From: a virus | DNA: 53,488 bases | IMG/VR virus record: IMGVR_UViG_3300020470_000011 | Span: 1 to 53,488 of that record | Direction: 5' to 3' (one strand) | Shown: piece after piece, positions 1,061 through 17,200 of the stretch | Layout: every line of letters starts with the position of its first letter | Position numbering within the stretch: the first letter of the stretch is position 1 | The notes under the pieces: model-generated | The model's input: only the letters and a program-made list of their open reading frames with translations | The model's database searches: none | What the model was told of the DNA's origin: nothing | Program-made: the position numbers and the translations under genes

Positions 1061-1088
1061 ATTATAGCAGATTAAATTAATATTGCAA
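1061..1088 (-). promoter_or_regulatory. Sigma70-like promoter
   Basis: On the minus strand TTGCAA (1083-1088) and TATAAT (1061-1066) are separated by 16 bases. It lies in the only gap between the oxygenase gene ending at 1077 and the gene starting at 1037, and its -35 element overlaps the end of the upstream gene. It would drive the small hypothetical genes at the left edge. Confidence 0.55.
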
Positions 1089-1793
1089 GCGTTTGTGCTC
1101 GTCTTGATATAATTTCTCGACAGTGATGGGGTCAAACCCTGCTATACCATGGTCCATGATAGGTGGTTCGTTGTTTACCTCATGTCTGGTAAATAGTCCC
1201 TGCCTCACATCTGGGTCCATGAATTTAAATGTCATAATATATCTATTCAATGCATAACGTGGTGTTGGTGGTCTACCTGTGTGTGGTATACGACCATCAA
1301 ACATTACAACACGACCAGGTCTAGGTGTAACTGCACGATGTGCATCTAAGTTATGGTCATAGAATATAGTTTCGCCACCCCATGATGGATCCCACTTGGT
1401 ATTTAAATATATTAATACTGTCTTATTACTTGGCACATCATGTGGTGCATCTACATGAATACCAGGTGTATTTCCAAATCTAAGCACATTAATATAACAT
1501 GCATACATATGGGCACGAGGGGGCAAATTTGGGCATTTCGCTTCCAAATATCCAAGCACATCAAGATAGAGTGGATCATTACTTGCTTCAAGTCCTGCTG
1601 CTTGGAAGTAAGTAGGATTCTCAATAGGACAGAAATTATATAACTGATGAGTCCAATAACTATGCCTCATGTCAACATCAGGTGTATCTGGTGTTGGTTG
1701 CTCATCAGTTCTAATAAACCTATAAGGTAAGTATACTACCTTATACATCAGTTCATCAGATGCTAATCCAGTATCTACTACATCAATTAGCAT
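1077..1793 (-). CDS. 2OG-Fe(II) oxygenase, prolyl-hydroxylase-like
   Basis: A 238-residue predicted Fe(II)/2-oxoglutarate dioxygenase with the double-stranded beta-helix signature: HxD at His113 and Asp115 (GIHVDAPHD), a distal histidine at 171 (GRIPHTGR) and an arginine near 184 that could bind the 2OG carboxylate. The long insert after the HxD (WGGETIFYDHN) is typical of prolyl 4-hydroxylase-like enzymes. I chose the ATG at 1793 rather than 1808 because GGAG lies 9 bases before it and the overlap with the preceding gene falls to 11 bases. It is the last gene of the halogenase/oxygenase operon. Substrate unknown: a protein side chain or a small molecule. Confidence 0.82.
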   Translation of the reverse strand: MLIDVVDTGLASDELMYKVVYLPYRFIRTDEQPTPDTPDVDMRHSYWTHQLYNFCPIENPTYFQAAGLEASNDPLYLDVLGYLEAKCPNLPPRAHMYACYINVLRFGNTPGIHVDAPHDVPSNKTVLIYLNTKWDPSWGGETIFYDHNLDAHRAVTPRPGRVVMFDGRIPHTGRPPTPRYALNRYIMTFKFMDPDVRQGLFTRHEVNNEPPIMDHGIAGFDPITVEKLYQDEHKRLQY

Positions 1794-2406
1794 AATAGTG
1801 CACTCCAATAATATTCATTGACATAACATATCTATCATCGTTTGAGTTATTCTTCTCAGTCTTGTGTGTCATCCATCCTGGAAAGAATAATACATCATTT
1901 GTTTTAACTTCAATAGGTGCCCAATCATATCCTTCATCATAATAATCATATACTAATGGTTCACCCATTTTATATGGTTGCAATGGATTCTTAACTAGTA
2001 ACCTACCACTATTCTCTGGCACGTGTAAATATGCAGCAACTGCAATAATAACATTCTGATGATGATGCTCTTCAGTGTATGCACCAGGTGGATGTACATT
2101 TATCCATGATGTATCTAATTGTTTAGTTAAATTCATGAATCTCATTTGTGACCATACATCATCAATGGTGCGGTACAAATAATTCTCTTGAAATTTCTTA
2201 AAACAATCCCAGTTGTGAGGTGGATCTCGTTTACTTATTATAACAGATGTGGTGCCACCATCTTTCTCATGTGTTTGAGCATTCTGTCTAATTATTTCTT
2301 CCTTAGCATGGTCTAAGTAAGTATCAACCTTATCTTTAATAGTATCAAATTCAAAATCATACTCACCCTTGAATATGTAAGGATGTGGATTAATGGGGAA
2401 GGGCAT
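1783..2406 (-). CDS. 2OG-Fe(II) oxygenase, TIGR02466-like
   Basis: A 207-residue protein with the layout of the TIGR02466 group of phage and marine bacterial oxygenases: SWINVHPPGAYTEEHHHQN holds the proximal histidines, followed by a beta strand and VPENSGRLLVKNP, then FFPGWMTHKTEKN with the distal histidine, and an Arg-containing strand DDRYVMSMNI for 2OG binding. The open frame extends 41 codons upstream, but the ATG at 2406 (MPFPINPHP) cuts the overlap with the preceding gene to 17 bases and matches where homologous sequence should begin. Fourth of the five oxygenases in the operon in transcription order; substrate unknown. Confidence 0.82.
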   Translation of the reverse strand: MPFPINPHPYIFKGEYDFEFDTIKDKVDTYLDHAKEEIIRQNAQTHEKDGGTTSVIISKRDPPHNWDCFKKFQENYLYRTIDDVWSQMRFMNLTKQLDTSWINVHPPGAYTEEHHHQNVIIAVAAYLHVPENSGRLLVKNPLQPYKMGEPLVYDYYDEGYDWAPIEVKTNDVLFFPGWMTHKTEKNNSNDDRYVMSMNIIGVHYYAN

Positions 2407-3079
2407 AATATTTTCTATCAACTGTTTTCTTATAAGGTAATAGATGTTGCATAGGTATACTACACGACAGTCTCTTCTCACTTGGTTGTGCCCAGTGATA
2501 ATGTCTAACAGGAATGTATAACACATCACCTGGTTTCATTATAACATCTATCGCACAGTCTAGGTCATCTTCATTAACATTTAAATTATATGCTAATAGA
2601 TTACTACATCTATTATTATATACTTTCCAATGTGTTTCACCCTCTACCTGTAGAATAAAATTATTAGCGTAGTCCTCATGTACCTTAAATGATTTACATT
2701 CACCTATACCTGCATAGATGTGGAATGACCCCACTATCTTAGGAAAATGCTCTTCTAACTCTTTTAATATATCCTGTCTCTTTCTATCAATCCACTCAAA
2801 CTTCTCAATAATACATGTATGACCTTCAGCAAATATATTCATCATATCTACTGGGTCTGCATGATCTTCAGACCAGAAACGTGGATACTTAGGATACTCT
2901 ATAAAATTATTTGTATTCCTATTAATAAACTTTATATCATAGAATTGAGGATTATTTAAACACCATTCAACATCACTCCATGTAACATAGTCCTGAGGGT
3001 TGTCACATATACCAGGAAAATACTCTGGTTGATCATTTATAGTCCAGTCTCTAGACTTTAGCAGCGAAGATATCATCAT
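2390..3079 (-). CDS. JmjC/cupin-type Fe(II) oxygenase
   Basis: A 229-residue protein of the cupin-8/JmjC type. The iron site appears as HED at 134-136 in CKSFKVHEDYANNF, then QVEGETHWKVY (the usual strand after the first ligands), then MKPGDVLYIPVRHYHWAQP, where His193 or His195 is the distal ligand. PGDVLYIP is characteristic of JmjC-type hydroxylases, which hydroxylate protein side chains, including ribosomal proteins, in bacteria. It overlaps the preceding gene by up to 29 bases, and either of two adjacent ATGs (3079, 3076) may be used. It differs in subfamily from the other oxygenases of this operon. Confidence 0.8.
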   Translation of the reverse strand: MMISSLLKSRDWTINDQPEYFPGICDNPQDYVTWSDVEWCLNNPQFYDIKFINRNTNNFIEYPKYPRFWSEDHADPVDMMNIFAEGHTCIIEKFEWIDRKRQDILKELEEHFPKIVGSFHIYAGIGECKSFKVHEDYANNFILQVEGETHWKVYNNRCSNLLAYNLNVNEDDLDCAIDVIMKPGDVLYIPVRHYHWAQPSEKRLSCSIPMQHLLPYKKTVDRKYYALPH

Positions 3080-3707
3080 CAGATAAGAAATTTAAATTCA
3101 ATGCAACTCTAAACTTGTGCTCACCATTTGGATTAGATGATGCATGGTATTGATGACCATCAAATACAAATAGTTTATTCGCTTCAGGTTTAACTCTCAA
3201 CCTCTCAGTATATGATTGTGTCCTCCCCTTATACCATCTCTCATCAATATTAAGACCTGAATTTGGGTCATCATACTGATCAAAGAATACAGTATCACCT
3301 GTACAATCATGCAAATAAAATAATGCAGCATAATGATCCTTCTCACTGTCTGTGTGAGGTGCATTATGGTGCATCTTACCGTTATTTAATTGTAATGCTA
3401 ATCTAACTCTTAGAAACTGTACAGGGCATGGCAAGGCATCTTGCACACTATCTAATACTGGTAACCAATGTGATAACCATGGTGACTCAACACCCTCTTG
3501 ATCTAATAATACATGTGTAAATCCTATTGCTTTCTCATCCTCTGGCATGTCCAGTAATTTAGTATCACCAAACATAAAACCATTAGTACTATAACTCACA
3601 TCATCTGATAAGAAATACCAAGGGAATCCATTCATTCCCTTAACTTGATCAAATAAGCGAGAGAGGTACGTTGGTGTTAATAGGTTTTCTACTTGGATAT
3701 ATTTCAT
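3051..3707 (-). CDS. 2OG-Fe(II) oxygenase
   Basis: A 218-residue predicted dioxygenase. The metal ligands are visible as PHTD (His118, Asp120), followed by HYAALFYLHDCTGDTVFFDQ, and GHQYHASS (His188), with Arg200 in the final strand as a likely 2OG contact. I prefer the ATG at 3707 (MKYIQVENL); an upstream ATG at 3770 would add a hydrophobic stretch and deepen the overlap with the preceding gene from 59 to 122 bases. Part of the overlapping oxygenase series in the halogenase operon. Substrate not known. Confidence 0.78.
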   Translation of the reverse strand: MKYIQVENLLTPTYLSRLFDQVKGMNGFPWYFLSDDVSYSTNGFMFGDTKLLDMPEDEKAIGFTHVLLDQEGVESPWLSHWLPVLDSVQDALPCPVQFLRVRLALQLNNGKMHHNAPHTDSEKDHYAALFYLHDCTGDTVFFDQYDDPNSGLNIDERWYKGRTQSYTERLRVKPEANKLFVFDGHQYHASSNPNGEHKFRVALNLNFLSDDDIFAAKV

Positions 3708-4329
3708 TATCACGTAGTTGATCAGAGAATAATTGTATATTAAATGATAGAGATATTCTATCATCATCACTTGAACTTGGGTCTACTGCATGCATTAACC
3801 ATGAAGGGAATAGAATAATATTATTCTCTTGAGGTGTAATATAATGCTCTAACTCATTAGCAGGATTCTCGAAGTGATCAAAATTATCTTGACAACCCCA
3901 TGACTCCTTCATACTGGTGTAATTAAAATCTCTAACAAATTTAATATCACCACTACAACATGTAGGTACTTTAACATAGAATACACCAGATAGCAAACTA
4001 CCTGCGTGGTGATGTATGTGATTCTTATCACCTCTAGTATTAATATTAATCCAAAGGTTAGTTACCCTTAAACTAAAATCTCTACATCCAAAATCCTCAG
4101 CAACTGCATATGCCATATGCTGCAGTCTTTGATGAAATGATGCTAATGGTGTTTGATCAATATAAGGTGGACGGAAATCATTTGATTGCCACCCTCCATC
4201 ATTAGATGCTACTCTACCTCTTGGATCTTCATCCTTAACATGGTATGCAAATGCTCTAATCTCATCTAGGTCTAAATCAAATGTATCCTGCCACAATTGG
4301 GTAGGAAATAATAATTCAGTCTTCATCAT
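3649..4329 (-). CDS. 2OG-Fe(II) oxygenase, TIGR02466-like
   Basis: This 226-residue protein is a clear member of the TIGR02466-type oxygenases: a characteristic start (ELLFPTQLWQDTFDLD), then LWININTRGDKNHIHHHAG with the proximal histidines near 106-108, LLSGVFYVKVP, and FPSWLMHAVDPS with the distal histidine, then DDRISLSFNI carrying the 2OG-binding arginine. It overlaps the coiled-coil gene upstream by 14 bases and is second-to-none in motif quality among the five oxygenases here. The reaction is probably hydroxylation; the substrate is unknown. Confidence 0.85.
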   Translation of the reverse strand: MMKTELLFPTQLWQDTFDLDLDEIRAFAYHVKDEDPRGRVASNDGGWQSNDFRPPYIDQTPLASFHQRLQHMAYAVAEDFGCRDFSLRVTNLWININTRGDKNHIHHHAGSLLSGVFYVKVPTCCSGDIKFVRDFNYTSMKESWGCQDNFDHFENPANELEHYITPQENNIILFPSWLMHAVDPSSSDDDRISLSFNIQLFSDQLRDNEIYPSRKPINTNVPLSLI

Positions 4330-4651
4330 TAAATACGAAATCTCTCTCAGTACACTCTGGATCTACATGCTTCTTATATAATGCTAGTGCTTCAACTGCA
4401 CCAGATAGTTTATTAAGCAAGTCTTTCTTAGTCTGCAATTCTTCTAGTGAAATCTTAGTAACTGTTGAGGTGTAGTGCATATTATCTAATGCTTTCTGCA
4501 ATTTAATATACTCTGCTTTCACAGTTTCATGTTGTTGCAAGAAGTTCATTACCAATTCATCAAAGGTAATAAGACCTTCAAGTGGTTTCACTTCCTGCTC
4601 TTCAATACCTGCTTCTTTAGCAAGGTCAACTACTTTAACGTCTTCTGGCAT
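4316..4651 (-). CDS. Predicted coiled-coil protein (111 aa)
   Basis: A 111-residue acidic protein, mostly helical, with heptad-like spacing in the middle (FLQQHETVKAEYIKLQKAL) and a second helix (LEELQTKKDLLNKLSGAVEAL). No catalytic motif, signal peptide or metal site is visible. Its ATG overlaps the stop of the upstream gene by one base (TAATG), so it is translated with the halogenase/oxygenase operon. It could be a scaffold or partner protein, or even a substrate of the enzymes around it; that is inference only. Confidence 0.6.
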   Translation of the reverse strand: MPEDVKVVDLAKEAGIEEQEVKPLEGLITFDELVMNFLQQHETVKAEYIKLQKALDNMHYTSTVTKISLEELQTKKDLLNKLSGAVEALALYKKHVDPECTERDFVFNDED

Positions 4652-5535
4652 TATTCAAACCTCTGTTTGTTTTTATTTAGTGCGAGTACTGCTTTATGTT
4701 TATCAATCCTTTCCTTCAATGATACCATTTCAATGAAGTGCATGTATCTATTATAATCCATGACTTTATTGTTTCTAATGTCCTCATCGTTGGCAGTCTC
4801 AATAACAACCTCCCAGTCCTTCCTATTAAATAGATTCCTATCCATTGGAATCCATTGTGCTAATGGTGTACCTGCTTTAATTAGATACTCACCCTCTTCT
4901 ACAGCATGCCAAAAGAGTTGCATATTAACTTCATAAGAGTATGAAGGATCTACAAATCCTGTTGCCACACTGAACCTTGGTTCAGGATAATAAGGTACTG
5001 GTATCTGCATGAATACAATATCCTTATGTGCTTGCACTCTCCAAGGTAATTCTAATTTAATAGTTTGCTCTGTTACTTCTCGTTGTTGATCAACTAAATC
5101 ACGAATACCTTCTGTCTGCTCTGGCACATGTCCTTTGACATATGTTGGACCTCCAGAGTCAAACATTACCTGTGCAACCCAACCAAAATCTTTCTTATCA
5201 CCAGTCATTTTGATAATAATATCTGCTGGCACTGTTACTACCCAACCTGTATCCATTAATCCTGTTAATGCAGGACATGTTACAGCATGGTTGAATAGTC
5301 CATCATAATTACCATCATAGTTTCCTGATACTTTGGAACTATAATGCTCCCACATATTCTTTAGTTTAACTGCAGGACATTTAGATGTCCTATTATAATA
5401 TGTTTTAAGGGCATCTTCTCTCCATTTCCTATGTAATTTATTAGCAGGAATCCATGGATGTAGTTCTGCTACACCTGGATGTAATGAGTAGAATCTAACC
5501 CATTTCTTATTCTTCTTTTTAAACAAATTAAACAT
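4651..5535 (-). CDS. Hypothetical protein (294 aa), possible DUF6065-like
   Basis: This 294-residue protein begins with a basic patch (FKKKNKKW). It has a mixed alpha/beta body rich in aromatic residues and Pro, including WVVTVPADI, MQIPVPYYPEP, and near the C-terminus EYLIKAGTPLAQWIPMDR, a pattern I associate weakly with DUF6065-type proteins found beside phage halogenases. No cofactor motif is obvious. It overlaps the second halogenase by 8 bases (ATGTTTAA), which ties it to the halogenation function, but its role (substrate handling, partner, or a divergent enzyme) cannot be read from sequence. Confidence 0.6.
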   Translation of the reverse strand: MFNLFKKKNKKWVRFYSLHPGVAELHPWIPANKLHRKWREDALKTYYNRTSKCPAVKLKNMWEHYSSKVSGNYDGNYDGLFNHAVTCPALTGLMDTGWVVTVPADIIIKMTGDKKDFGWVAQVMFDSGGPTYVKGHVPEQTEGIRDLVDQQREVTEQTIKLELPWRVQAHKDIVFMQIPVPYYPEPRFSVATGFVDPSYSYEVNMQLFWHAVEEGEYLIKAGTPLAQWIPMDRNLFNRKDWEVVIETANDEDIRNNKVMDYNRYMHFIEMVSLKERIDKHKAVLALNKNKQRFE

Positions 5536-7105
5536 AGATATTATCCCTTAAATATTCATAATGTGTTGGTTGCTGTTGTGCCCATTGTAGCATATCTTGA
5601 CGCTCTTGTTGATATTTTGTGTGGATATCATTAATAGCATATTCAACTTCATGTGTCAATTTCTCCCTGAATAAACCTTGACTTAATGGAGAAATATTCT
5701 GCCCAGCAGCAATATAAAGCAAACCTTCAATACGACGTGGATTAAAGAATCTCTTGTCCATACTATCTATCAAATTTGCATAATCTTCTAGTGCTGATAC
5801 AGTAGACCTAGGGTCATTTACTAAATCAGGTTGGAAGGTCAGAGTATCTGTGCAATCTCTCCAATAATCATTATCCTCACGTGAACTGAGAGCATAATGT
5901 AATGCTACAAAGTTTTTAAATCCTTCTAATAGATTGTCAACAGTATGATTATATGCATCTCTATCGAATTTAGTTACCTTACCGTGTCTACATGCTAACT
6001 GATCTGATAAAAATATCAAGTTTTCATGTGTGGTCATTAAACCAGTAGATTCTAATGGTTCCAAGAATCCATAAGATAAACCAATACCAACTACATTCTT
6101 TTCCCATGCTACCTTATGCTTACCATGCTTAATCTTAATAGGCATTAATAGGCATTCTTGGGCAGATTTGGGATTATATCTCTTAGCAAGATATTGTCTG
6201 AATTCCCACTCAGCATCTGCATCACTAATATATTTACTGGAGTATACATATCCAGTCCCAACATTTTCCCACAGTGGTATATTCCATATCCATCCAGCAT
6301 TCATTGCTACACAATCTGTGTAGGTCTGCATCTGTTTCTCTCTATCTGTATAATCAATATGTGTTGCTAATGCCCTATCATTAAATAATAATTTATTAAA
6401 TGGTTTAAACTCTACACCCATATGTTGCTCAAGGAGTAGTGATTTAAATCCTGTGCAATCAACAAATAGATCAGCACTAACCATACCACCATCATCTGTA
6501 GTAACACCCTTGATACTACCATCAGGTCTCTTTAATACATCACCAACGTTACCTTTAACATAATGAACACCATTAGGTATAGCAATATTATCTCTTAGAT
6601 ACTCACCAAATTTACCAGCATCGAAATGATATGCAGTATCATCCTTGAATTGCCATTTTGATCCAGGTATCTCATCTGATATCCTACATTCATCTGCTAA
6701 GTATGTTGACTTATTAATAAACCTAGAGAATTCTTCAGGTGGATATAATTCAGGATGCATACATCTAATCTCAAAGAATCTCATGAGATTATCCTTCCAA
6801 TCACCTATATCCATCCTTCCAAATGGATACTGAAATGTCTCACCATTACCATCTCTAAAATTAGTAAACCCAATAGATGTCTTATAGGTTGCATTACATG
6901 CTGGCATCCAATCTCTATCTTCCAGTCTCAACCTCTTAAGGAACCTATTAAAATGTCCTAGTGTTGATTCACCTACACCAATAGTTTTAATATCAGGTGA
7001 TTCAATAAGACATATTTCTATATTAGGATGCTCTGTGGATAGAATAGCAGCAGACATCCACCCACTACTACCTCCACCTACAATACAAATAGATTCAACT
7101 TGCAT
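5528..7105 (-). CDS. prnA: Flavin-dependent (tryptophan-type) halogenase, copy 2
   Basis: A 525-residue flavin-dependent halogenase. Seen: FAD dinucleotide-binding motif IVGGGSSGWMSA near residues 8-19, GVGEST at 43-48, a lysine at 75 (ATYKTSIGF) in the position of the catalytic lysine that forms the haloamine, the halogenase signature WxWxIP in GWIWNIPLW, and GFLEPLESTG, which carries the conserved glutamate. Such enzymes oxidise halide with FADH2 and oxygen and need a separate flavin reductase, which is not seen nearby. The start at 7105 is preceded by AAGGAG at a good distance; an upstream ATG at 7129 is less likely. It shares its overall plan with the halogenase upstream, so the pair probably arose by an old duplication. 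A related cyanophage enzyme, VirX1, is known to halogenate (notably iodinate) small aromatics. Confidence 0.93.
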   Translation of the reverse strand: MQVESICIVGGGSSGWMSAAILSTEHPNIEICLIESPDIKTIGVGESTLGHFNRFLKRLRLEDRDWMPACNATYKTSIGFTNFRDGNGETFQYPFGRMDIGDWKDNLMRFFEIRCMHPELYPPEEFSRFINKSTYLADECRISDEIPGSKWQFKDDTAYHFDAGKFGEYLRDNIAIPNGVHYVKGNVGDVLKRPDGSIKGVTTDDGGMVSADLFVDCTGFKSLLLEQHMGVEFKPFNKLLFNDRALATHIDYTDREKQMQTYTDCVAMNAGWIWNIPLWENVGTGYVYSSKYISDADAEWEFRQYLAKRYNPKSAQECLLMPIKIKHGKHKVAWEKNVVGIGLSYGFLEPLESTGLMTTHENLIFLSDQLACRHGKVTKFDRDAYNHTVDNLLEGFKNFVALHYALSSREDNDYWRDCTDTLTFQPDLVNDPRSTVSALEDYANLIDSMDKRFFNPRRIEGLLYIAAGQNISPLSQGLFREKLTHEVEYAINDIHTKYQQERQDMLQWAQQQPTHYEYLRDNIYV

Positions 7106-8570
7106 ATAGTGTCTCCTTATAATATTCAATGGGCAATGGCATATCTCTCAATTCATCTTCATCCCATCTCATGTCATTATAATCTGGAACATCATACCCA
7201 AAGAAATCCATCTCATTGTATATAACATCATTAAATGGATTCCATCCATGTCCTGCCATAATACAGAACAATCCTTCTTTTGCCAAGTTATCCATAGAGA
7301 ATTTATCAGCAAAATTAGATGACTCCTCCATAAAACTAACCTGTGCACCTGTAATAGAATCCTTACCTCCATATGGATATCTAATATTACTTACATGCCT
7401 CCAGTATGGTGTATCATTACGATTTGTCATAGCATAATGAGATGCAACAAATGATGCGAATGCATCAAATGTATAGTTACAATGATTATTAAATGTATCT
7501 CTCATAAACTGTGTGACATTCTTCTTCATCCCATCTTGGGAATGCATAACACGTAAGAAGTATAGCAGATAATTATGGATAGACAATAGACCATTTGATT
7601 CTAATGGTTCAACAAAACCAGCAGACAATCCAATGGATACTACATTACCCTTCCATGCCTCCTTCTTCCTACCTGTCTTAAATTTAATTAACCTAAACTC
7701 ATGATCATCATCTACACCTAAATGCTCTTTAAATTCTTGCTTCGCTGCTTCCTCACTTAGATAATCACTACAGAATACATATCCAGTACCAATCCTATTC
7801 CATGTTGGTACATTCCACACCCATCCAGAGGATAATGCAGTGCAGTCTGTCACTGGCACCATCTCCCAATCTGGATCACGACCATGCATACCATATGGTA
7901 TTTGTGTCACCCATGCTCTATCATTTGGTAGATAGTCATAGAAATCCTTCCAAGGTGAATCATTTAACAATGACTTAAACCCTGTGCAATCGAAATATAA
8001 ATCTGCTTCTGGTAAATTATTTACATCAACATCTTCTACATAATGCTTCACACCACGTGGTGTAGCATACTCATCTCTTAACCAATTTGCAAACTTAACT
8101 GCATTGAAATGGAAACCACTGTGCTTACGCAATCTATAATACTGCTCTGCATACTCACCTATTGGTAACCTATTCCATTTAGAACACTTTGCTGCAAGAT
8201 AATAATCATCAGCAAACTTATCATAACCCCACTTTGCCCTATATGCATACCAAAACCAGAAATCAGGTGTATAACCATCATTCCTAGGTACACCAAAGGG
8301 ATATTGCCAAGGTATATCATTAACATCATGAAAGTTTGTGAATCTAACACTAATCTTATAGGTAGCATCACATGCTGCCATCCAATCCTCATCCTGCAAC
8401 CCTAGAAAATTTAACCAGAGTCTAAAGAATTGAGTAGTAGATTCTCCCACACCTGTAGGTGGAATGCCTGGAGACTCGTACAAAGAAATATCCCAGTCAG
8501 GGTATGCCTTGACTAGGGTACTTGCTGTCATCCAACCAGCGGTTCCACCGCCAACAATAACAATCTTCAT
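7095..8570 (-). CDS. prnA: Flavin-dependent (tryptophan-type) halogenase, copy 1
   Basis: A 491-residue halogenase and the first gene of the operon. Motifs: IVGGGTAGWMTA (FAD, residues 5-16), GVGESTTQFF, putative catalytic Lys72 in DATYKISVRFTNF, WVWNVP in place of the WxWxIP signature (Val for Ile), and GFVEPLESNG with the conserved glutamate. The active-site motifs look intact, so it is probably active. It starts at 8570 right after a near-perfect sigma70-like promoter, with an unusually short leader and no obvious ribosome binding site. Its stop overlaps the next halogenase by 11 bases. The two copies differ throughout the substrate region, which suggests different substrates or a heterodimer. 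Confidence 0.93.
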   Translation of the reverse strand: MKIVIVGGGTAGWMTASTLVKAYPDWDISLYESPGIPPTGVGESTTQFFRLWLNFLGLQDEDWMAACDATYKISVRFTNFHDVNDIPWQYPFGVPRNDGYTPDFWFWYAYRAKWGYDKFADDYYLAAKCSKWNRLPIGEYAEQYYRLRKHSGFHFNAVKFANWLRDEYATPRGVKHYVEDVDVNNLPEADLYFDCTGFKSLLNDSPWKDFYDYLPNDRAWVTQIPYGMHGRDPDWEMVPVTDCTALSSGWVWNVPTWNRIGTGYVFCSDYLSEEAAKQEFKEHLGVDDDHEFRLIKFKTGRKKEAWKGNVVSIGLSAGFVEPLESNGLLSIHNYLLYFLRVMHSQDGMKKNVTQFMRDTFNNHCNYTFDAFASFVASHYAMTNRNDTPYWRHVSNIRYPYGGKDSITGAQVSFMEESSNFADKFSMDNLAKEGLFCIMAGHGWNPFNDVIYNEMDFFGYDVPDYNDMRWDEDELRDMPLPIEYYKETLYAS

Positions 8571-8590: not shown

Positions 8591-8619
8591 ATTATACTAT
8601 GGTGGTGACCAACCGTCAA
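8591..8619 (-). promoter_or_regulatory. Sigma70-like promoter of the halogenase operon
   Basis: On the minus strand TTGACG (8614-8619) is followed after 17 bases by a perfect TATAAT (8591-8596). The -35 box lies inside the end of the preceding gene. Transcription would begin roughly 12-15 bases before the halogenase ATG, giving a nearly leaderless message. No late-type TATAAATA box is present, so the operon is probably read by unmodified host RNA polymerase, early in infection. Confidence 0.65.
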
Positions 8620-9022
8620 CCCACGCATCCCATGCCTTACGACCCTCTAGTTGAGTCTTCTTAGGATCTGGCACAAACTCTGCAATGGTACCTGGTTTAG
8701 TCGTAGTTGCCTTTACATTAGCAACATGATCCTTCCACGTAGTAGTACCATTAACCTGGTCTTTATACATCATATCCAACTGGTCTCCCACATCACCATA
8801 AGCGACATTACGGGCGACTCTTGCTAATTCTCTAAGATCTTCTTGTGTAGACCTATGGATTACCTCACCATTGACCATCTTATGTTCATAAGTTGTGTCA
8901 TCAGGTACTTCCATCCACTTCATATTTGCATCTGCACCTTCATAGATTTCAAATTTGTCTGCGGTATCAACAATATCTGTGATTTGACCGCTATCGCCAT
9001 TAACGATTGCCCATTTACTCAT
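8597..9022 (-). CDS. Possible tail-fibre-associated or assembly protein (141 aa)
   Basis: This 141-residue protein starts MSKWAIVNGDSGQI and contains GDQLDMMYKDQVNGTTTW and DHVANVK, a pattern familiar from small proteins near the tail-fibre genes of marine phages. It follows three adhesin genes, has an excellent ribosome binding site (AAGGAGAT) and a late-type promoter box just upstream, so it is a late product. A role in fibre assembly or as a small virion protein is inferred from position and that motif only. Confidence 0.6.
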   Translation of the reverse strand: MSKWAIVNGDSGQITDIVDTADKFEIYEGADANMKWMEVPDDTTYEHKMVNGEVIHRSTQEDLRELARVARNVAYGDVGDQLDMMYKDQVNGTTTWKDHVANVKATTTKPGTIAEFVPDPKKTQLEGRKAWDAWVDGWSPP

Positions 9023-9045: not shown

Positions 9046-9053
9046 TATTTATT
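9046..9053 (-). promoter_or_regulatory. Late-type promoter box (AATAAATA)
   Basis: AATAAATA on the minus strand, one base off the T4 late consensus TATAAATA, 24 bases before the ATG at 9022 and overlapping the stop codon of the upstream adhesin gene. Its placement matches the other late boxes in this window. Confidence 0.45.
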
Positions 9054-9873
9054 AACCGTAGTATTCATAGACTACCACGATTCCCTCTCGACCTCTTGCA
9101 CCTCGGTTACCAAACTGAGATCCATTACCACCTGCACCCCATGCACAATGTGATTGATGCCTGTGTGAATAGTTACTTTGGTTGTGTGATGCAGGTTGGG
9201 AACTACCAAAATATGAAGCACCTGCAGCATGGTTGCCATAAGATGCCCAGTTACCATAACCATTACCTCCACCGCCATAAACGTTGAGGTCACCACCTGA
9301 TCCATTACCACCATATCCACCATTGTGTTGTCTGTCACAATTAGCACCTACTCCACCAGAAGCAGAGCAATATCCACCAAATGAGGATGAGTTACCATTA
9401 CCACCACAACCAGCATAGTTAGTACCACCACCTGGGTTTCCTACTGTAACTGATACTGAAGATGTATTAGTAACATCAATCACACGACGTGACATACCAC
9501 CAGCACCAGCAGATTCACATTTACCTGAACCTCCTCCACCAGCACCGATAACAACAACTTGAATTGATTTACAGTTATTAGGTCTATTCCAAGTACCACT
9601 AGATGTCCATACTTGCATAGATCTAAATCCTGCACCACCTCCACCACCTTCAAATTCTGTAGACCACGTTAGTTGACTTCCATCATTGCTGAGGAATCTA
9701 CCTGACTGACCTGAAAGAGATGGAACATTATAATTTGACGACCCTGTAATATCTCCGTTAACATTCAGATTGTTAACCTTAAGAGTTCCATTCGCAGTTA
9801 TCGAACCACTGCTGAAGGTAAACCCTCCCAGTCCTGAAATATCAGTGACGCTAGAAACCTTAAGAACACTCAT
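9052..9873 (-). CDS. Glycine-rich tail-fibre adhesin, copy 1
   Basis: A 273-residue glycine-rich protein. The first 75 residues are an N-terminal attachment region with phage-fibre features (ITANGTLKVNNLNVNGDITG). Then comes SMQVWTSSGTW, a beta domain leading into long Gly-rich runs (GAGGGGSGKCESAGAGG, GGNGSGGDLNVYGGGGNGYG), and a nearly invariant tail (YSHRHQSHCAWGAGG). This layout recalls polyglycine-II adhesins such as gp38 of T4-like phages, which bind receptors with loops between Gly-rich helices. It is the last of three tandem paralogs and overlaps the next upstream one by ATGA. The segment after GGNGYG (NWASYGNHAAGASYFGSSQP) differs between copies and may contact the receptor. Confidence 0.75.
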   Translation of the reverse strand: MSVLKVSSVTDISGLGGFTFSSGSITANGTLKVNNLNVNGDITGSSNYNVPSLSGQSGRFLSNDGSQLTWSTEFEGGGGGAGFRSMQVWTSSGTWNRPNNCKSIQVVVIGAGGGGSGKCESAGAGGMSRRVIDVTNTSSVSVTVGNPGGGTNYAGCGGNGNSSSFGGYCSASGGVGANCDRQHNGGYGGNGSGGDLNVYGGGGNGYGNWASYGNHAAGASYFGSSQPASHNQSNYSHRHQSHCAWGAGGNGSQFGNRGARGREGIVVVYEYYG

Positions 9874-10679
9874 CCGAAAAACTCCTGTACAATTACAACA
9901 CCTTCACGACCTCTTGCACCTCTGTTACCATGCTGAGATCCATTGCCACCTGCACCCCAAGCACAATGTGACTGGTGTCTGTGTGAATAGTTACCCTGAT
10001 TATGTCCAGCAGGTTGTGACCCACCTAAGAATGACACGCCAGCAGTATGGTTTGCGAATGACCAATAAGATCCATAACCATTTCCTCCACCACCGTAGAT
10101 ATTTAAATCTCCACCTGATCCATTACCACCATATCCTCCTGCATGCTGTCGTGAGCAGTTTGCTCCTACTCCACCACTTGCACTACAATAACTACCAAAC
10201 GATGATGAGTTACCATTACCACCACATCCTGAATAGTTAGTACCACCTCCTGGATTACCTACAGATACAGATACTGAAGAAACATTTGTTACATCTATTA
10301 CTCTTTCAGAGCAACCACCAGCACCAGCAGATTCGCAGTAACCACTGCCTCCTCCACCAGCACCTACTACAGTGACAATAATAGATGTGCAATTTTGTGG
10401 TCTAGTCCAAGTACCACTAGATGTCCAAACTTGCATAGACCGAATACCAGATCCAGCAGTAACTGCTGACCATTCAAATCCACTACCAGTTGACTTTAGT
10501 GCTTTACCTGCGTTACCACCGAGTGAGGGTACAATCCATGTGGATCCACCTCTTATGTCACCATTAATGACTAATGCAGAGCAAGTAAGAGTCGTTGACG
10601 CTGTGATACCTCCACCAGCGAGCATGAATCCTTCTGCCCCAGTTAAATCTTTTAATGCTGATACTTTAAGTTTTGACAT
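9870..10679 (-). CDS. Glycine-rich tail-fibre adhesin, copy 2
   Basis: A 269-residue paralog of its two neighbours: the same plan of N-terminal region, SMQVWTSSGTW, Gly-rich domain and invariant HRHQSHCAWGAGG tail. Its variable segment after GGGGNGYG reads SYWSFANHTAGVSFLGGSQP. Cysteines in the Gly-rich part (GYCESAGAGG, GCGGNG, SYCSASGG, GANCSRQH) are conserved in position among the three copies and may pair or stabilise loops. A late-type box lies at 10700-10707 before its start, so each copy may be separately transcribed. Receptor binding on the cyanobacterial surface is inferred. Confidence 0.75.
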   Translation of the reverse strand: MSKLKVSALKDLTGAEGFMLAGGGITASTTLTCSALVINGDIRGGSTWIVPSLGGNAGKALKSTGSGFEWSAVTAGSGIRSMQVWTSSGTWTRPQNCTSIIVTVVGAGGGGSGYCESAGAGGCSERVIDVTNVSSVSVSVGNPGGGTNYSGCGGNGNSSSFGSYCSASGGVGANCSRQHAGGYGGNGSGGDLNIYGGGGNGYGSYWSFANHTAGVSFLGGSQPAGHNQGNYSHRHQSHCAWGAGGNGSQHGNRGARGREGVVIVQEFFG

Positions 10680-10699
10680 AGGTCAATGATTCCTACTGC

Positions 10700-10707
10700 T
10701 ATTTATC
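10700..10707 (-). promoter_or_regulatory. Late-type promoter box (GATAAATA)
   Basis: GATAAATA on the minus strand, 21 bases before the ATG at 10679, overlapping the stop codon of the upstream adhesin gene. One mismatch to TATAAATA. Confidence 0.45.
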
Positions 10708-11512
10708 CAAAGAACTCGTGTACTACCACAACACCTTCTCTTCCTCTCGCTCCACGGTTTCCATGCTGTGATCCATTTCCACCAGCACCCCAGGCACAAT
10801 GGGATTGGTGTCTATGAGAGTAGTTTCCTTGGTTGTGAGATGATGGTTGAGTACCACCCCAGTAACTAGCACCAGCAGTATGATTACCATATGAGTGGTG
10901 TGAACCATATCCACTTCCACCACCTCCATATATGTTTAACGCTCCACCAGATCCGTTACCGCCATATCCTCCTGCATGTTGTCTTTCACAATTTGCTCCA
11001 GCACCACCTGATGCTGAACAATAACCTCCAAAACTAGAAGAGTTACCACTTCCACCACAACCAGAGTAATTAGATCCTCCACCTGGGTTTCCGATAGTAA
11101 CTGATACTGAAGAAACATTTGATACATCTATTTGTCTTTGTGAGGTACCACCTGCACCTCCTGATTCACAAAATCCTGAACCACCGCCACCTGCACCTGT
11201 ACAGGTAACCATAATTGTAGAACAACCGCTTGGTTTATTCCACGTGCCATTAGATGTCCAAACTTGCATAGACCTGACACCTGAAGCAGAAGACAGGGTA
11301 CCCCATGTTAACGCACTACCATTATTGCTTACATATTCATCTGTATGACCTGAGGGATCTGGGAGAATATAAGCGGATGACCCCGAAATGTTGCCATCAA
11401 TTTGAATGTCATTAACAGTTAAAGTACCATTAGCAGTGATACCACCAGTAGAGAATGTAAATCCACCGATGCCACCTAAGTCTTTAATAGCTCCAATATT
11501 TAACTGTGCCAT
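10703..11512 (-). CDS. Glycine-rich tail-fibre adhesin, copy 3
   Basis: A 269-residue member of the tandem adhesin family, first in transcription order. The N-terminal region (MAQLNIGAIKDLGGIGG, ITANGTLTVNDIQIDGNISG) is the most divergent part relative to the other copies, as expected if it docks to a different partner, while the C-terminal block is almost identical. The variable segment is SHHSYGNHTAGASYWGGTQP. Base-level identity is high around the MQVWTS codons in all three copies, so the duplications are recent or kept alike by recombination. The start is preceded by AAGGA and two late-type boxes. Confidence 0.75.
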   Translation of the reverse strand: MAQLNIGAIKDLGGIGGFTFSTGGITANGTLTVNDIQIDGNISGSSAYILPDPSGHTDEYVSNNGSALTWGTLSSASGVRSMQVWTSNGTWNKPSGCSTIMVTCTGAGGGGSGFCESGGAGGTSQRQIDVSNVSSVSVTIGNPGGGSNYSGCGGSGNSSSFGGYCSASGGAGANCERQHAGGYGGNGSGGALNIYGGGGSGYGSHHSYGNHTAGASYWGGTQPSSHNQGNYSHRHQSHCAWGAGGNGSQHGNRGARGREGVVVVHEFFG

Positions 11513-11535: not shown

Positions 11536-12096
11536 CTATTTATCATTATTTATGTCCGCAAATATATTAAACGCAATAGAAATGCGGTCTTCATCACTAT
11601 CATTCTCTTCTACATCATGTTCCAACCAACAAGGGAAAAATAATACCATCCCTTCCTCTGGGTCTATGTAGTGATATTCATGACCATCATTAAAATATTC
11701 ATGGTCAGGCATACATGTCATCAATGGACCTCTAGGGTCATAAAATCTAATTCTTCCTGAATTCTCAGGCACCTTCACATAATACACACCAGAAAGAAAA
11801 ATAGAAGTATCGAGGTGAACATGTCTTTGGTTCCTGTGACCCTTAGAGTTGACATTAACCCACGTGAAAATGGAGTATTCTTGAATCGGTTTATCTTCTC
11901 TCCTAGGGCATGCTTCTGTAATCGCATTAATCCATTCCTCATTGTAAAACAATTCTCCTTGATAACCACCTATATTAGAAAAAGTTTTAGATGGAGTATT
12001 GATAGCAAACTCTCTAATTTCTTTTTCCAATTGTCTGTTATCTAGATTTAATATATCACAATGTACTGGAGTTGGAAAGAAATTAAATGTTCTCAT
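11536..12096 (-). CDS. 2OG-Fe(II) oxygenase, TIGR02466-like, in the adhesin region
   Basis: A 186-residue oxygenase with the same plan as the one at 3649-4329: MRTFNFFPTPVHCD at the start, FTWVNVNSKGHRNQRHVHLD carrying the proximal histidines and aspartate, IFLSGVYYVKVPENSGRIRF, then FFPCWLEHDVEEND with the distal histidine and DEDRISIAFNIF with the likely 2OG arginine. I start it at the ATG at 12096, which overlaps the stop of the preceding gene (TGATG). It sits between two groups of glycine-rich fibre genes, so a virion protein is a possible substrate; that is inference. Confidence 0.82.
   Translation of the reverse strand: MRTFNFFPTPVHCDILNLDNRQLEKEIREFAINTPSKTFSNIGGYQGELFYNEEWINAITEACPRREDKPIQEYSIFTWVNVNSKGHRNQRHVHLDTSIFLSGVYYVKVPENSGRIRFYDPRGPLMTCMPDHEYFNDGHEYHYIDPEEGMVLFFPCWLEHDVEENDSDEDRISIAFNIFADINNDK
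11537..11554 (-). promoter_or_regulatory. Pair of late-type promoter boxes
   Basis: GATAAATA (11537-11544) and CATAAATA (11547-11554) on the minus strand, 24-42 bases before the ATG at 11512. The first overlaps the stop codon of the oxygenase gene upstream. Two boxes in tandem are unusual in this window. Confidence 0.45.
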
Positions 12097-12383
12097 CACC
12101 ACTTACCCAAGGGACAGGTAGTATACCTAGTGTCCAATGTTTTATTGATTAATGCCATCACAATACGTTTGACATCCATAAAACATCCACACTCCATACA
12201 CTGACGTGTAACTGGATTCCACCTATCACAAGTATAGCATATTTCTATGTTTTTTGCAGCAATAGGGGCAAAATACTCTTTCTTTTGGTCAAGATCAGGC
12301 AAAATGAAGTCCCTATATTTACTGGACCATATTAAACCTGTTTCTTTTCCATTAATTACTTCTTTATCACCATCTTTACGCAT
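12096..12383 (-). CDS. Small zinc-ribbon-like protein (DUF6171-like)
   Basis: A 95-residue protein with six cysteines: Cys49, Cys52, Cys62, Cys65, Cys67 and Cys90, in the arrangement CYTCDRWNPVTRQCMECGCF ... CPLGKW. This resembles phage DUF6171-type metal-binding proteins and suggests a zinc site. It overlaps the adhesin-like gene upstream by 8 bases and the oxygenase downstream by 3, so all three are probably co-expressed. Function unknown; assembly or protein-protein contact is one option. Confidence 0.65.
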   Translation of the reverse strand: MRKDGDKEVINGKETGLIWSSKYRDFILPDLDQKKEYFAPIAAKNIEICYTCDRWNPVTRQCMECGCFMDVKRIVMALINKTLDTRYTTCPLGKW

Positions 12384-13385: not shown

Positions 13386-14246
13386 TTATCCGTAATTAGA
13401 ACCAGAGCCAAACACTGTGTATGACTCAGTTTGTGACCCCGTTAGTGGTTTATTTATGATTGAAAATGATGTTACAGCATAAGTGCCACTCATTCCTGGT
13501 GCACTACCACCTGACCACTGAACAGTATGAGCTACTCCATTAAGATTAAGACTAGTTGGAACACCTGAACCACCAGCATTCTCACCAACTACAGTGATAC
13601 CAAAGGCAACATCTCCAGACGTTGGTACATTAGTTACTGACAGGGTATAATCTCCACCACCTGTCCTAGTAATATACAAAGAGTTGTTGTCATTGAAATC
13701 ATGACTAATATTACCACTAGAAGTATAGTGCTTCATCTCCTCTGCTGTCTCAGCAAAGTTAAGAATACCTGTTGATTTAATATCAACAGCAGTCACATCA
13801 GATACCTCAAGACTCATATCATCTTGACCACCAATAATATTCCACGTGGCACCATTCTCAATAGTGACTGTAAAACCGTTTGCAATAGTAATTGGACCTG
13901 CACTGAATCCATTAGTGAATTCAACACCACCATTAGCAATTGGACCTATTGTTAAATTCTCTGATATTGTGGTACCATTAGTCCTAACAATACTATTCTC
14001 ACCAACTGAGGGACCACCACCTCCAACTGTTGTCCAACCTGGGACACCTTGTTGAGCATCTTGTTTATAAATCTGTGCTGCATCTTCGGTGCTGTTGTAC
14101 ACCAAAGTACCATAAGCAGGTGCACCGAGTGCTGTTACTGCTGCTTGGTTTAAATTAGGAAGATTGAGTTGCTCAGTGACTTGTAGTGCCTCCATAATGG
14201 CACGAGTCGTTGCATCAATCTGATTACCAATTATCTTGGTGGACAT
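13386..14246 (-). CDS. Virion fibre-like protein (286 aa)
   Basis: The first 50 residues (MSTKIIGNQIDATTRAI, LNLPNLN, GTLVYNSTEDAAQIY) resemble the head-binding or fibre-start segments of phage tail-fibre proteins, where a virtual-parameter-like strand YGTLVYN is common. The rest is beta-rich with Asn, Gly and Thr (NGFTVTIENGATWNII, HYTSSGNISHDF). It follows a late-type box at 14268-14275 and has the ribosome binding site AGAGGTGAT. A structural tail role is likely; the exact part is not determined. Confidence 0.65.
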   Translation of the reverse strand: MSTKIIGNQIDATTRAIMEALQVTEQLNLPNLNQAAVTALGAPAYGTLVYNSTEDAAQIYKQDAQQGVPGWTTVGGGGPSVGENSIVRTNGTTISENLTIGPIANGGVEFTNGFSAGPITIANGFTVTIENGATWNIIGGQDDMSLEVSDVTAVDIKSTGILNFAETAEEMKHYTSSGNISHDFNDNNSLYITRTGGGDYTLSVTNVPTSGDVAFGITVVGENAGGSGVPTSLNLNGVAHTVQWSGGSAPGMSGTYAVTSFSIINKPLTGSQTESYTVFGSGSNYG

Positions 14247-14275: not shown

Positions 14276-17200
14276 TTAGATGACCAATTCACGTATCTGT
14301 ATGTTATCTCCAGTTTGAGGTGTTGTACCTACAGCGAAGTCAACAGCATTACCTGTTACTGTGTAGTCAATTCCTGGTCTCTGGCAGACACCATTTAAGA
14401 ATACCATTAATGAATATGCTGTATGTCCTGGAGAAATTGCAAACGTATTTGTAGTGCCATCTCCTGCATACATCACACCATTGTTACCATTATTAACACC
14501 AGTAGCAAGGGTATACTTGTCTGCACAACCATACTTACCAGTTACGTCAATATCACCAGTAACCTTCACGTTACCAGTAATCTTCATTCTATTGAGTGCG
14601 TCTGGTGCTTCACCAATACCATAATGAGTTACACCACTATATCTTTGAGATGTAATAGGTGCAGTATCGGATAGACCAAACTTATACCAAATACCAGTGT
14701 CATATATCCATCCTAAGAATGTACCTGGAGTCCAGTCAATATTATATGCAATATCACCACTATTATAAGCAGCACCTGCTGTAATAACTGGGTTACCAGT
14801 ACCATCATCCTCTGCTAGGAATGTATTCCTTAAAACAGTACCATCATCGTTAGATAAGGTAAAGTTTAGTGTCTGCAATGTATCCTGTGATGTTATCTTC
14901 TTCTGGAAGGTAACAGGACCAGAGAATACTGATTCCAACTGGTTAGATGCACCACCAATAACCGTTAGTTTATCGGTAAGCACAATCTCACTGAAGGTCT
15001 CAATAGTTGTACCTTCTTCACCCAACACGTTAAGTTGAGCAATATCTTCGTTAGTGATCTGACCTGTAACTGGGTTGATAACCTGGTTACCAACAAACAA
15101 CTCACCATCACTGTTAACACCAGAGTAGTATGCAACACCTGCTGCTTCTTTCAGTGACTGTGATAATCTAACTGCATCTTTACTTAATACTTCTACCTGT
15201 GTAGATGGGAATGCAGTTGAGTAGTTACCTGGACCAAATCCAAGATACTCAAACGTGTGACCTGATGCTCTGAGGATTGAGTATCTTCGCAATTCACAGA
15301 GTAGAGGTTGTACTGAGTTATCAGCATTTAGTTTGAGTGCAATCTTTCTTTCTTCTGCTTCACCTAGTCGTGCAGTAACACTAATACCATTCAATACGTT
15401 AGATGTAGTATTATATCCTAGGTTATTTTCAGATTCTAGTAAGAAGAATTGTGATGTCTCTTTAGTGACACTTCTTTGTGTATCCTCATTAGGAGTAGGA
15501 GATGCACCATCAGTAGTAGTAACTACACCTAGTGTCTCATTACTTGCAACAGATACAGATGCAGCAGGGTCTGCTACTGGGTTGTCTCTGTCAAATGCAG
15601 GATATAAATCTACAGTTGCCTGTGAGAATGCAAAGTCATTAAAGTTAGACGTTGAAGGTGATACTGAAGCATTCAATAGCGTCAGATAGTATACACCGTC
15701 AGTCACACCTCTTACAAATTCTTGATGAGTCTCTACAGCATATATGTAATATGTTTTACTGTATGCTGGACTATTGGTTTCACTACTTCGTGGTTGGATA
15801 ACAAAACCTGTAATAGGTGCTCTGGGTACAGGGAAGGCATCCTTGTCCAATACATAGCGGTACCTGTAAATCCTATCAACCAAGTTTCTAGCATCTGGTA
15901 CCCTCCTTACAAATGTAGTTGGTGTGAATCCAAGGTTTTGATATAGACTGTTTGCTTGCAGTGTAGTATAGATGGTATTTGCTGCTCCATCTACTTGTAA
16001 ATACCACTGACTATTTGCAGTATCAAACTTAATTGGTGAATCATCATCACCTGCCCTAGTACCTGTTACGCTAGTGCCTGAGGGGTTAATGTCTGCATAG
16101 TGTGTAGTAGGTTCACTAGCACCACTGGCAATCAAGAGCACATATAGTCTATCTGGGGTGTTAACGTCATCACGTCTAGCACCTACAGTATATCCTTGCA
16201 CCTTACTTGGTGGTCTAGCAGTCTCTACAGTATAACCATAGAGGAATAGTTTTGTTGGGTCTGCAACACTCTTCGTCTTATTAATATCAATGGTTACCCA
16301 GTTAATTGATATCTCATTAACATCATCTAATGACTTAGGTGGGATACAGTGTGTTATCTGCCCTGCTTTATCCTTCGTAAACGCTGCTGCTTTAAAGCCT
16401 TTAGATCGGAGAGAAGTGTTACCAAAGTTTGAGTTCGAGTTGGTAATCGAGAGGTCTCCTCCACTGTCAGAGAAGAAATGATCTCCGAATCCGACTGCGA
16501 ACACAGAGACGACTTGGATGAAAGCATCATTCGACGCTTTAATATGTCGATGTCGCCATCCCTTTCGGTATTTGGCGAGTCCATTAATGTGAGCACCTGA
16601 TCCCGCAGCTTGGGGTTCATACGCTCCAGTATTTTGGTTGTAAAGTACGAACGCTCGGTCATCTTTCTGTAGCGAAATGCCAGTAAACTGGGCAACAACC
16701 ATCGACTTAAATCCAGTGGCTTTGGCACCATCTGCATGCATGCCGTTAATACCCCAGACTGAGCGGAGACTACAGTTGAAAACATATGGAGACGCTGAGT
16801 CAACAGTGTCAATCTCCACTTTCACTAGGATGTTGCTACCTAGTGCATTACCAGATGGTTCAGAGGACATCTGGTAAGTAAATTGGTTACCTTGTGCACT
16901 GGTTACCAAGAATGATCCATTATAGAGGAGAGCATCTTGGTCAGTAGGACCAGTAACACCAGATATATTAACAGCGACACCCACGGAGAACCCATGATTC
17001 TTCGGGTTACCGAGTTCATCGACTGTAAATGCTGTTGCAGTTTGTCCATTTCTGATAATCTGAGATACAGCGAATTCATCAGAAATAGGACCAACGATTC
17101 TGTTTTCCTCGACCCTTGCTTGCATCTGGTCTTGTGCAGGAATACCAGAGGTGTCAGGAATAACAGCGTATCCTTTTGATATCTTTTGGTAATATAACTC

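What the first reader, a model, noticed from the sequence alone, without database searches (positions are those of the whole stretch)
1077..8570. A self-contained nine-gene operon with two halogenases and five iron oxygenases
Seen: nine minus-strand genes run without a gap from a TTGACG-N17-TATAAT promoter (8591-8619) to 1077, each overlapping the next by 1-59 bases. Two are flavin-dependent halogenases with intact motifs, four are 2OG-Fe(II) oxygenases, one is a JmjC/cupin enzyme, one is coiled coil and one is an unknown 294-residue protein. Known: a cyanophage halogenase (VirX1, phage Syn10) is active on small aromatics. Inference: together they look like a tailoring pathway for a peptide, protein or metabolite, expressed early. 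No flavin reductase, peptide synthetase or core peptide was found, so reduced flavin and the substrate would come from the host or from virion proteins.
Basis: partly seen in the sequence, partly recalled or inferred. Interest (0 to 1): 0.82.

Follow-up and report, generated by a model that had tools for sequence, protein, structure and literature searches.

The report
Phage tail-tip protein modification cassette
A marine cyanobacterial virus carries two halogen-adding and five oxygen-adding enzymes whose genes nearly always travel with the genes for the sticky tips of its tail fibres, which suggests that the virus chemically alters its own host-recognition proteins rather than making a small molecule.

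Summary
The nine genes, their 1-59 bp overlaps, halogenase motifs and promoter are real, but not self-contained. They are the second half of a conserved cassette in T4-like cyanophages: tail fibre, 1-4 glycine-rich tip adhesins, small protein, halogenase(s), dUTPase-fold protein, 2OG/JmjC oxygenases. In 91 of 91 distinct adhesin loci with at least 2.5 kb downstream, a halogenase follows within 1.1 kb. The adhesin model matches the receptor-binding fibre of cyanophage Pam3. S-RIM44 isolates with 95-97% identical flanks differ by replacement of the whole adhesin-halogenase-oxygenase block with another tip protein, so it is exchanged as a unit. All 105 distinct cassette-type adhesins keep Glu116 and Tyr149; 11 unlinked relatives have neither, though the linked ones form one clade. 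hal2 is the counterpart of VirX1, an active viral halogenase without a known natural substrate. Best reading: a post-translational modification cassette for the tail-tip adhesin. Substrate, chemistry and timing are inferred. I found no paper proposing this; published guesses are antibiotic protection or host metabolism. Published S-SZBM1 virion proteomics detected neither adhesins nor enzymes; re-searching such data with halogen and oxygen mass shifts is a cheap test.

The parts
7095..8570 (-). Halogenase 1 (hal1), 491 aa, flavin-dependent, optional paralogue, first where two are present
   Evidence: Pfam Trp_halogenase E 1.8e-90; motifs; separate clade from hal2
5528..7105 (-). Halogenase 2 (hal2), 525 aa, counterpart of VirX1
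   Evidence: VirX1 6qgm E 5e-156 over 2-524; Pfam E 3.3e-106
4651..5535 (-). U: 294-aa protein with dUTPase-like fold, phrog_7084, function unknown
   Evidence: AF2 pLDDT 86.7; Foldseek top hits dUTPases, E 2.2e-4
4316..4651 (-). c: 111-aa protein without Pfam family, conserved after U
3649..4329 (-). oxyD: PF13759 2OG-Fe(II) oxygenase-like; HxH in place of HxD, invariant in 110 aligned homologues
3051..3707 (-). oxyC: 2OG-like (phrog_274, weak DUF6445)
   Evidence: start
2390..3079 (-). JmjC_2/cupin oxygenase
   Evidence: PF08007 E 3.2e-18; phrog_8014
1783..2406 (-). oxyB: PF13759; HxH invariant in 61 homologues
1077..1793 (-). oxyA: PF13640 2OG-Fe(II) oxygenase
   Evidence: E 8.7e-12
8591..8619 (-). 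Sigma70-type promoter TTGACG-N17-TATAAT overlapping the end of gene s; a similar site recurs at the same place in many loci of this lineage
8597..9022 (-). s: 141-aa protein (phrog_1787), in the position of a tail-fibre assembly chaperone (inferred)
   Evidence: no solved relative found
9052..9873 (-). Glycine-rich tip adhesin A
   Evidence: PF21722 E 2.9e-10; phrog_863
9870..10679 (-). Glycine-rich tip adhesin B (reference for Glu116, Tyr149 numbering)
   Evidence: AF2 pLDDT 85.8; Foldseek Pam3 fibre 7ypx E 2e-9
10703..11512 (-). Glycine-rich tip adhesin C
11536..12102 (-). Further PF13759 2OG-Fe(II) oxygenase next to the adhesins
   Evidence: E 9.1e-26
13386..14246 (-). p: tail-fibre-associated protein; its homologues precede adhesins and halogenase in 52 of 52 loci with over 5.5 kb downstream
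14276..17848 (-). Tail fibre protein (phrog_529)

Best explanation
The operon is the enzyme half of a tail-tip cassette. The phage makes three glycine-rich adhesins for the distal end of its tail fibres, plus a probable assembly helper (s). Two flavin-dependent halogenases and five 2OG/JmjC-type oxygenases then modify side chains on these adhesins, using host reduced flavin, halide, O2 and 2-oxoglutarate. The likeliest halogenation target is the invariant Tyr149, or other aromatic or His residues of the glycine-rich loops; the oxygenases would hydroxylate others. The result would be a chemically altered receptor-binding surface. Shown: gene content, motifs, fold of the adhesin, complete linkage in the loci tested, exchange as one block in S-RIM44, clade-specific residues. 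Inferred: that the adhesin is the substrate, which residues are hit, the roles of U, c and s, and the benefit to the phage.
For: Linkage: 91/91 distinct adhesin loci carry a halogenase within 1.1 kb, median 540 bp; the order TF-p-Ad-s-H-U-c-oxygenases recurs. Genome-wide in 25 complete isolates: 9 with a strong adhesin all have a VirX1-type halogenase; 2 have the halogenase only; 14 neither; Fisher p 2.7e-5, not corrected for kinship. Halogenases that sit elsewhere in L016 and L019 are in contigs that also hold three adhesins followed by a linked second halogenase. Block exchange in S-RIM44: flanks 96.6% and 94.8% identical, 10.75 kb cassette replaced by a different tip protein, a small gene and one 2OG gene. 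Adhesin fold matches the Pam3 receptor-binding fibre (PMC9608196). Glu116 and Tyr149: 105/105 in cassette-type adhesins versus 0/11 unlinked relatives, including cyanophages Syn33 and S-H35, while structural residues are largely shared. L061: halogenases, oxygenases and U homologues beside three tandem tips of another tail-fibre family. VirX1 has a large, open active site (PMC8407142).
Against: No modification has been seen. The linked adhesins form one clade, so shared residues and linkage could reflect common descent. S-H35 has a VirX1-type halogenase far from an adhesin that lacks the signature, S-MbCM6 has a weaker relative near psbA, and Sf-CH11 has one with other tip genes. The conserved His/Glu/Tyr set could instead be a metal or receptor site. 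VirX1 acts on small aromatics in vitro. In S-SZBM1 virions fibre-region proteins 51-54 were detected but not adhesins 48-49, although these have 8-9 suitable peptides: they may be scarce, absent or altered.
Confidence: 0.62

Rival explanations
1. Tail-module linkage is real, but the enzymes modify another target at the tip: the long tail fibre, protein p, or a host surface molecule, while Glu116/Tyr149/His residues of the adhesin form a receptor- or metal-binding site.
For: Halogenases occur with other tip proteins in Sf-CH11 and L061. In S-RIM44 the tail fibre itself also diverges (65-70%) together with the cassette.
Against: Across lineages the genes directly before s and the halogenase are the adhesins, not the fibre.
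Confidence: 0.15
2. Small-molecule tailoring pathway expressed during infection.
For: VirX1 halogenates diverse small aromatics and heterocycles in vitro (PMC8407142). Host-type promoter.
Against: No core biosynthetic gene among the genes inspected; the block travels with tail-tip genes.
Confidence: 0.1
3. Halogenase as an auxiliary metabolic gene, for example antibiotic (pyrrolnitrin-like) protection of the host.
For: Repeated in the literature as speculation (PMC2984593, PMC9964418, PMC9146016).
Against: No other pyrrolnitrin genes seen nearby; does not explain linkage to adhesins or co-exchange.
Confidence: 0.04
4. DNA or nucleotide modification, given the dUTPase-like protein and the 'DNA endonuclease V' labels.
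For: U matches dUTPase folds; labels in PHROG.
Against: The label sits on 2OG-oxygenase-like proteins and the gene context is tail, not replication.
Confidence: 0.03

Closest known systems
VirX1, flavin-dependent halogenase of cyanophage Syn10 (PDB 6qgm)
   Same: hal2 aligns over its whole length (E 5e-156); in Syn9, whose halogenases match the window with the same identities as those of Syn10, it lies in the same order after adhesin-type genes and hal1
   Different: Characterised on small aromatics only; no natural substrate and, in the papers read, no link to tail genes
Cyanophage Pam3 tail fibre gp24 with chaperone gp25 (7ypx, 7yfw)
   Same: Distal glycine-rich receptor-binding domain; a small gene next to it
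   Different: In Pam3 the distal tip is hypervariable (PMC9608196), here several non-glycine residues are invariant; s has no detectable sequence similarity to a solved chaperone; no halogenases are described in that paper's text read here
T4-superfamily gp38 adhesins (for example Salmonella phage S16)
   Same: Glycine-rich tip adhesin, per the comparison in PMC9608196
   Different: Not among the Foldseek matches printed here; no linked modification enzymes known to me
JmjC_2 protein oxygenases (YcfD, MINA53, NO66; from memory)
   Same: Same Pfam domain PF08007; known members hydroxylate protein Arg or His
   Different: Substrate here unknown

Membership tests
Flavin-dependent (tryptophan-type) halogenase | FAD motif, GWxWxIP-type motif, catalytic Lys and Glu | tested here: met
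   Alignment of 14 phage halogenases; Pfam
Flavin-dependent (tryptophan-type) halogenase | Halogenating activity with reduced flavin | not testable with these tools
   Only the homologue VirX1 has published activity (PMC8407142)
VirX1 subfamily | hal2 full-length best match to VirX1 and own clade apart from hal1 | tested here: met
2OG-Fe(II) oxygenases | HxD...H metal triad | tested here: inconclusive
   HVD, HTD and HED are visible in the sequences at 1077, 3051 and 2390; 1783 and 3649 have HxH, invariant in homologues
Glycine-rich tip adhesin (Pam3 gp24 type) | Gly_rich domain and matching fold | tested here: met
   PF21722, Foldseek E 2e-9
Glycine-rich tip adhesin (Pam3 gp24 type) | Presence in virion | tested here: inconclusive
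   S-SZBM1 proteome lists 51-54 but not adhesins 48-49; absence is not proof
dUTPase | Fold | tested here: met
   Foldseek top hits, TM-score by target 0.62, by query 0.28: the core of U only
dUTPase | Catalytic motifs and activity | tested here: inconclusive
   Asp105 and Gly193 invariant, Asp196 nearly so; motifs not mapped, activity untested
Secondary-metabolite gene cluster | Core synthase or precursor peptide | tested here: not met
   None among the operon, tail-module genes and ORFs inspected

The most novel reading that the evidence does not exclude
Marine T4-like cyanophages halogenate and hydroxylate their own receptor-binding tail tips: a virus-encoded protein halogenation system that alters host recognition, and the natural role of VirX1-type enzymes.
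Probability: 0.35. Interest if true: 0.93.

Novelty: new variant of a known kind. Interest (0 to 1): 0.78.

Why it matters
VirX1 is a known biocatalyst without a known natural substrate, and cyanophage 'tryptophan halogenases' have been treated as metabolic genes for over fifteen years. Tying them to the tail-tip adhesin gives a specific, testable substrate and candidate residues. If true it would be an unusual way for a virus to diversify or harden its host-binding surface, and it would help explain the many 2OG oxygenase genes next to cyanophage tail fibres.

Tried and rejected
Bacterial parallel: a genome-contig scan with U gave two phage-like contigs in microbial assemblies and four distant bacterial homologues without halogenases nearby. 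Recalled TonB-receptor/SapC/halogenase loci: no paper found, dropped. U as DUF6065: only weak hits. s as a Pam3 gp25-type chaperone by sequence: no hit. 'Halogenases are always linked to adhesins': rejected, exceptions exist. The Syn9 transcriptome and the VirX1 paper were not held, so timing and the original substrate tests could not be read.

Full report
What is there. The window is a 53,488-base virus record from IMG/VR with cyanomyovirus matches in the phage collection. Both halogenases carry the flavin-dependent halogenase motifs. hal2 aligns with VirX1 over its length; hal1 belongs to a separate clade and comes first where two are present. Loci with one halogenase mostly hold the hal2 clade.

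Directly upstream lie s (8597-9022) and three glycine-rich proteins (9052-11512). I called ORFs and searched profiles in 78 sequences and then in further loci seeded with the adhesin, with U and with protein p. The order tail fibre, p, adhesins, s, halogenase(s), U, c, oxygenases recurs. Of 91 distinct adhesin loci with at least 2.5 kb downstream, all have a halogenase within 1.1 kb. Named phages with this order, or close to it, include P-TIM40, Syn9, S-RIM44, P-RSM6, S-WAM1, S-SZBM1, S-CREM1 and Sf-FR1.

What the adhesin is. An AlphaFold2 model (pLDDT 85.8) matches the Pam3 cyanophage fibre best (E 2e-9). In Pam3 the glycine-rich end recognises the host and its tip is hypervariable (PMC9608196).

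Test of co-variation. In 105 distinct cassette-type adhesins Glu116 and Tyr149 are invariant, Asn174 is 100/105, Arg253 100/105, His226 97/105 with Trp or Tyr in the rest. Of nine halogenase-free homologues none has Glu116 or Tyr149, while Trp91, Phe161 and Asn193 are largely shared. Two more relatives from cyanophages, Syn33 (no halogenase) and S-H35 (halogenase elsewhere), also lack Glu116 and Tyr149. The cassette-type adhesins are one well-supported clade, so this is a clade signature and not independent evidence from many lineages. Placement of these residues at loop tips is my inference from the glycine-rich pattern; I had no coordinates.

Natural experiment. Cassette-plus S-RIM44 isolates (KX349291, 293, 294, 296) match the region fully; S-RIM44 records KX349292, 295, 297 and KU594607, and phage Syn1, match only from the neck genes on. 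I compared one pair in detail: left flank 96.6%, right flank 94.8% identical, fibre 65-70%, and between them 10.75 kb of adhesins, s, halogenases, U and oxygenases replaced by a 294-aa tip-like protein, a 121-aa protein and one 2OG-type protein. The block moves as one.

Limits of the rule. A VirX1-type halogenase sits away from adhesins in S-H35 and beside other tip genes in Sf-CH11; a weaker relative in S-MbCM6 is near psbA. In L016 and L019 the unlinked hal1 is accompanied elsewhere in the contig by three adhesins and a linked halogenase. In L061 two halogenases, several 2OG genes and four U-like genes lie beside three tandem tips of another tail-fibre family.

U. The 294-aa protein folds in its core like a dUTPase (pLDDT 86.7). 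Its role is unknown.

Expression. The promoter is the best of its kind in 12.5 kb. A sigma70-type site recurs at the same spot in much of the window's lineage, while several other lineages show a terminator-like hairpin and an ATAAATA late-type motif instead. In the window NATAAATA motifs precede s, the adhesins and the fibre, and none lies inside the operon on its strand. Timing stays open.

Proteomics. In S-SZBM1 virions proteins 51-54 were found, but not adhesins 48-49, s, the halogenase or the oxygenases. The adhesins would give 8-9 usable tryptic peptides. Scarcity, absence and modification all fit.

Literature. Papers found treat the gene as antibiotic protection or as a host-metabolism gene. 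I found none that links it to adhesins, within an open-licence library.

Verdict. The linkage and block exchange are well supported. That the adhesin is the substrate is the best explanation at about 0.62; halogenation of Tyr149 in particular is a guess to be tested.

Noticed in passing
L102, L106, L126, L103 between s and the halogenase: A hairpin followed by a T run lies between the sigma70-type promoter and the halogenase start codon, like an attenuator.
   Followed up: no
Phage records, for example L070-L075: 2OG-oxygenase-like genes of the cassette are annotated as DNA endonuclease V, ferrochelatase or minor coat protein; the labels look carried over from PHROG families.
   Followed up: partly
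L263, L264: Whole cassettes in assemblies named Euryarchaeota TMED129 and Nonlabens xiamenensis; probably phage contigs binned or assembled with these.
   Followed up: partly
L061:1-16800: Cluster of two halogenases, several 2OG genes and four U-like genes converging on three tandem Tyr/Asn/His-rich tail tips of another family.
   Followed up: partly
L234 (Sf-CH11): Halogenase and oxygenases in the tail-tip slot with a GspG-like and a LamG-like protein instead of glycine-rich adhesins.
   Followed up: no
OP535465.1:54494-55291 and NC_008296.2:31149-32415: Second adhesin copies in S-CREM1 (five in-frame TAA) and Syn9 (match split over several pieces) look decayed.
   Followed up: no
window:12096-13380: Two genes between tail genes with no homologue in the 77 loci first searched, one of them glycine-rich.
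   Followed up: no
L269 (Pelagibacter phage HTVC008M): Halogenase between terminase genes, with four 2OG genes next to gp13 nearby.
   Followed up: no
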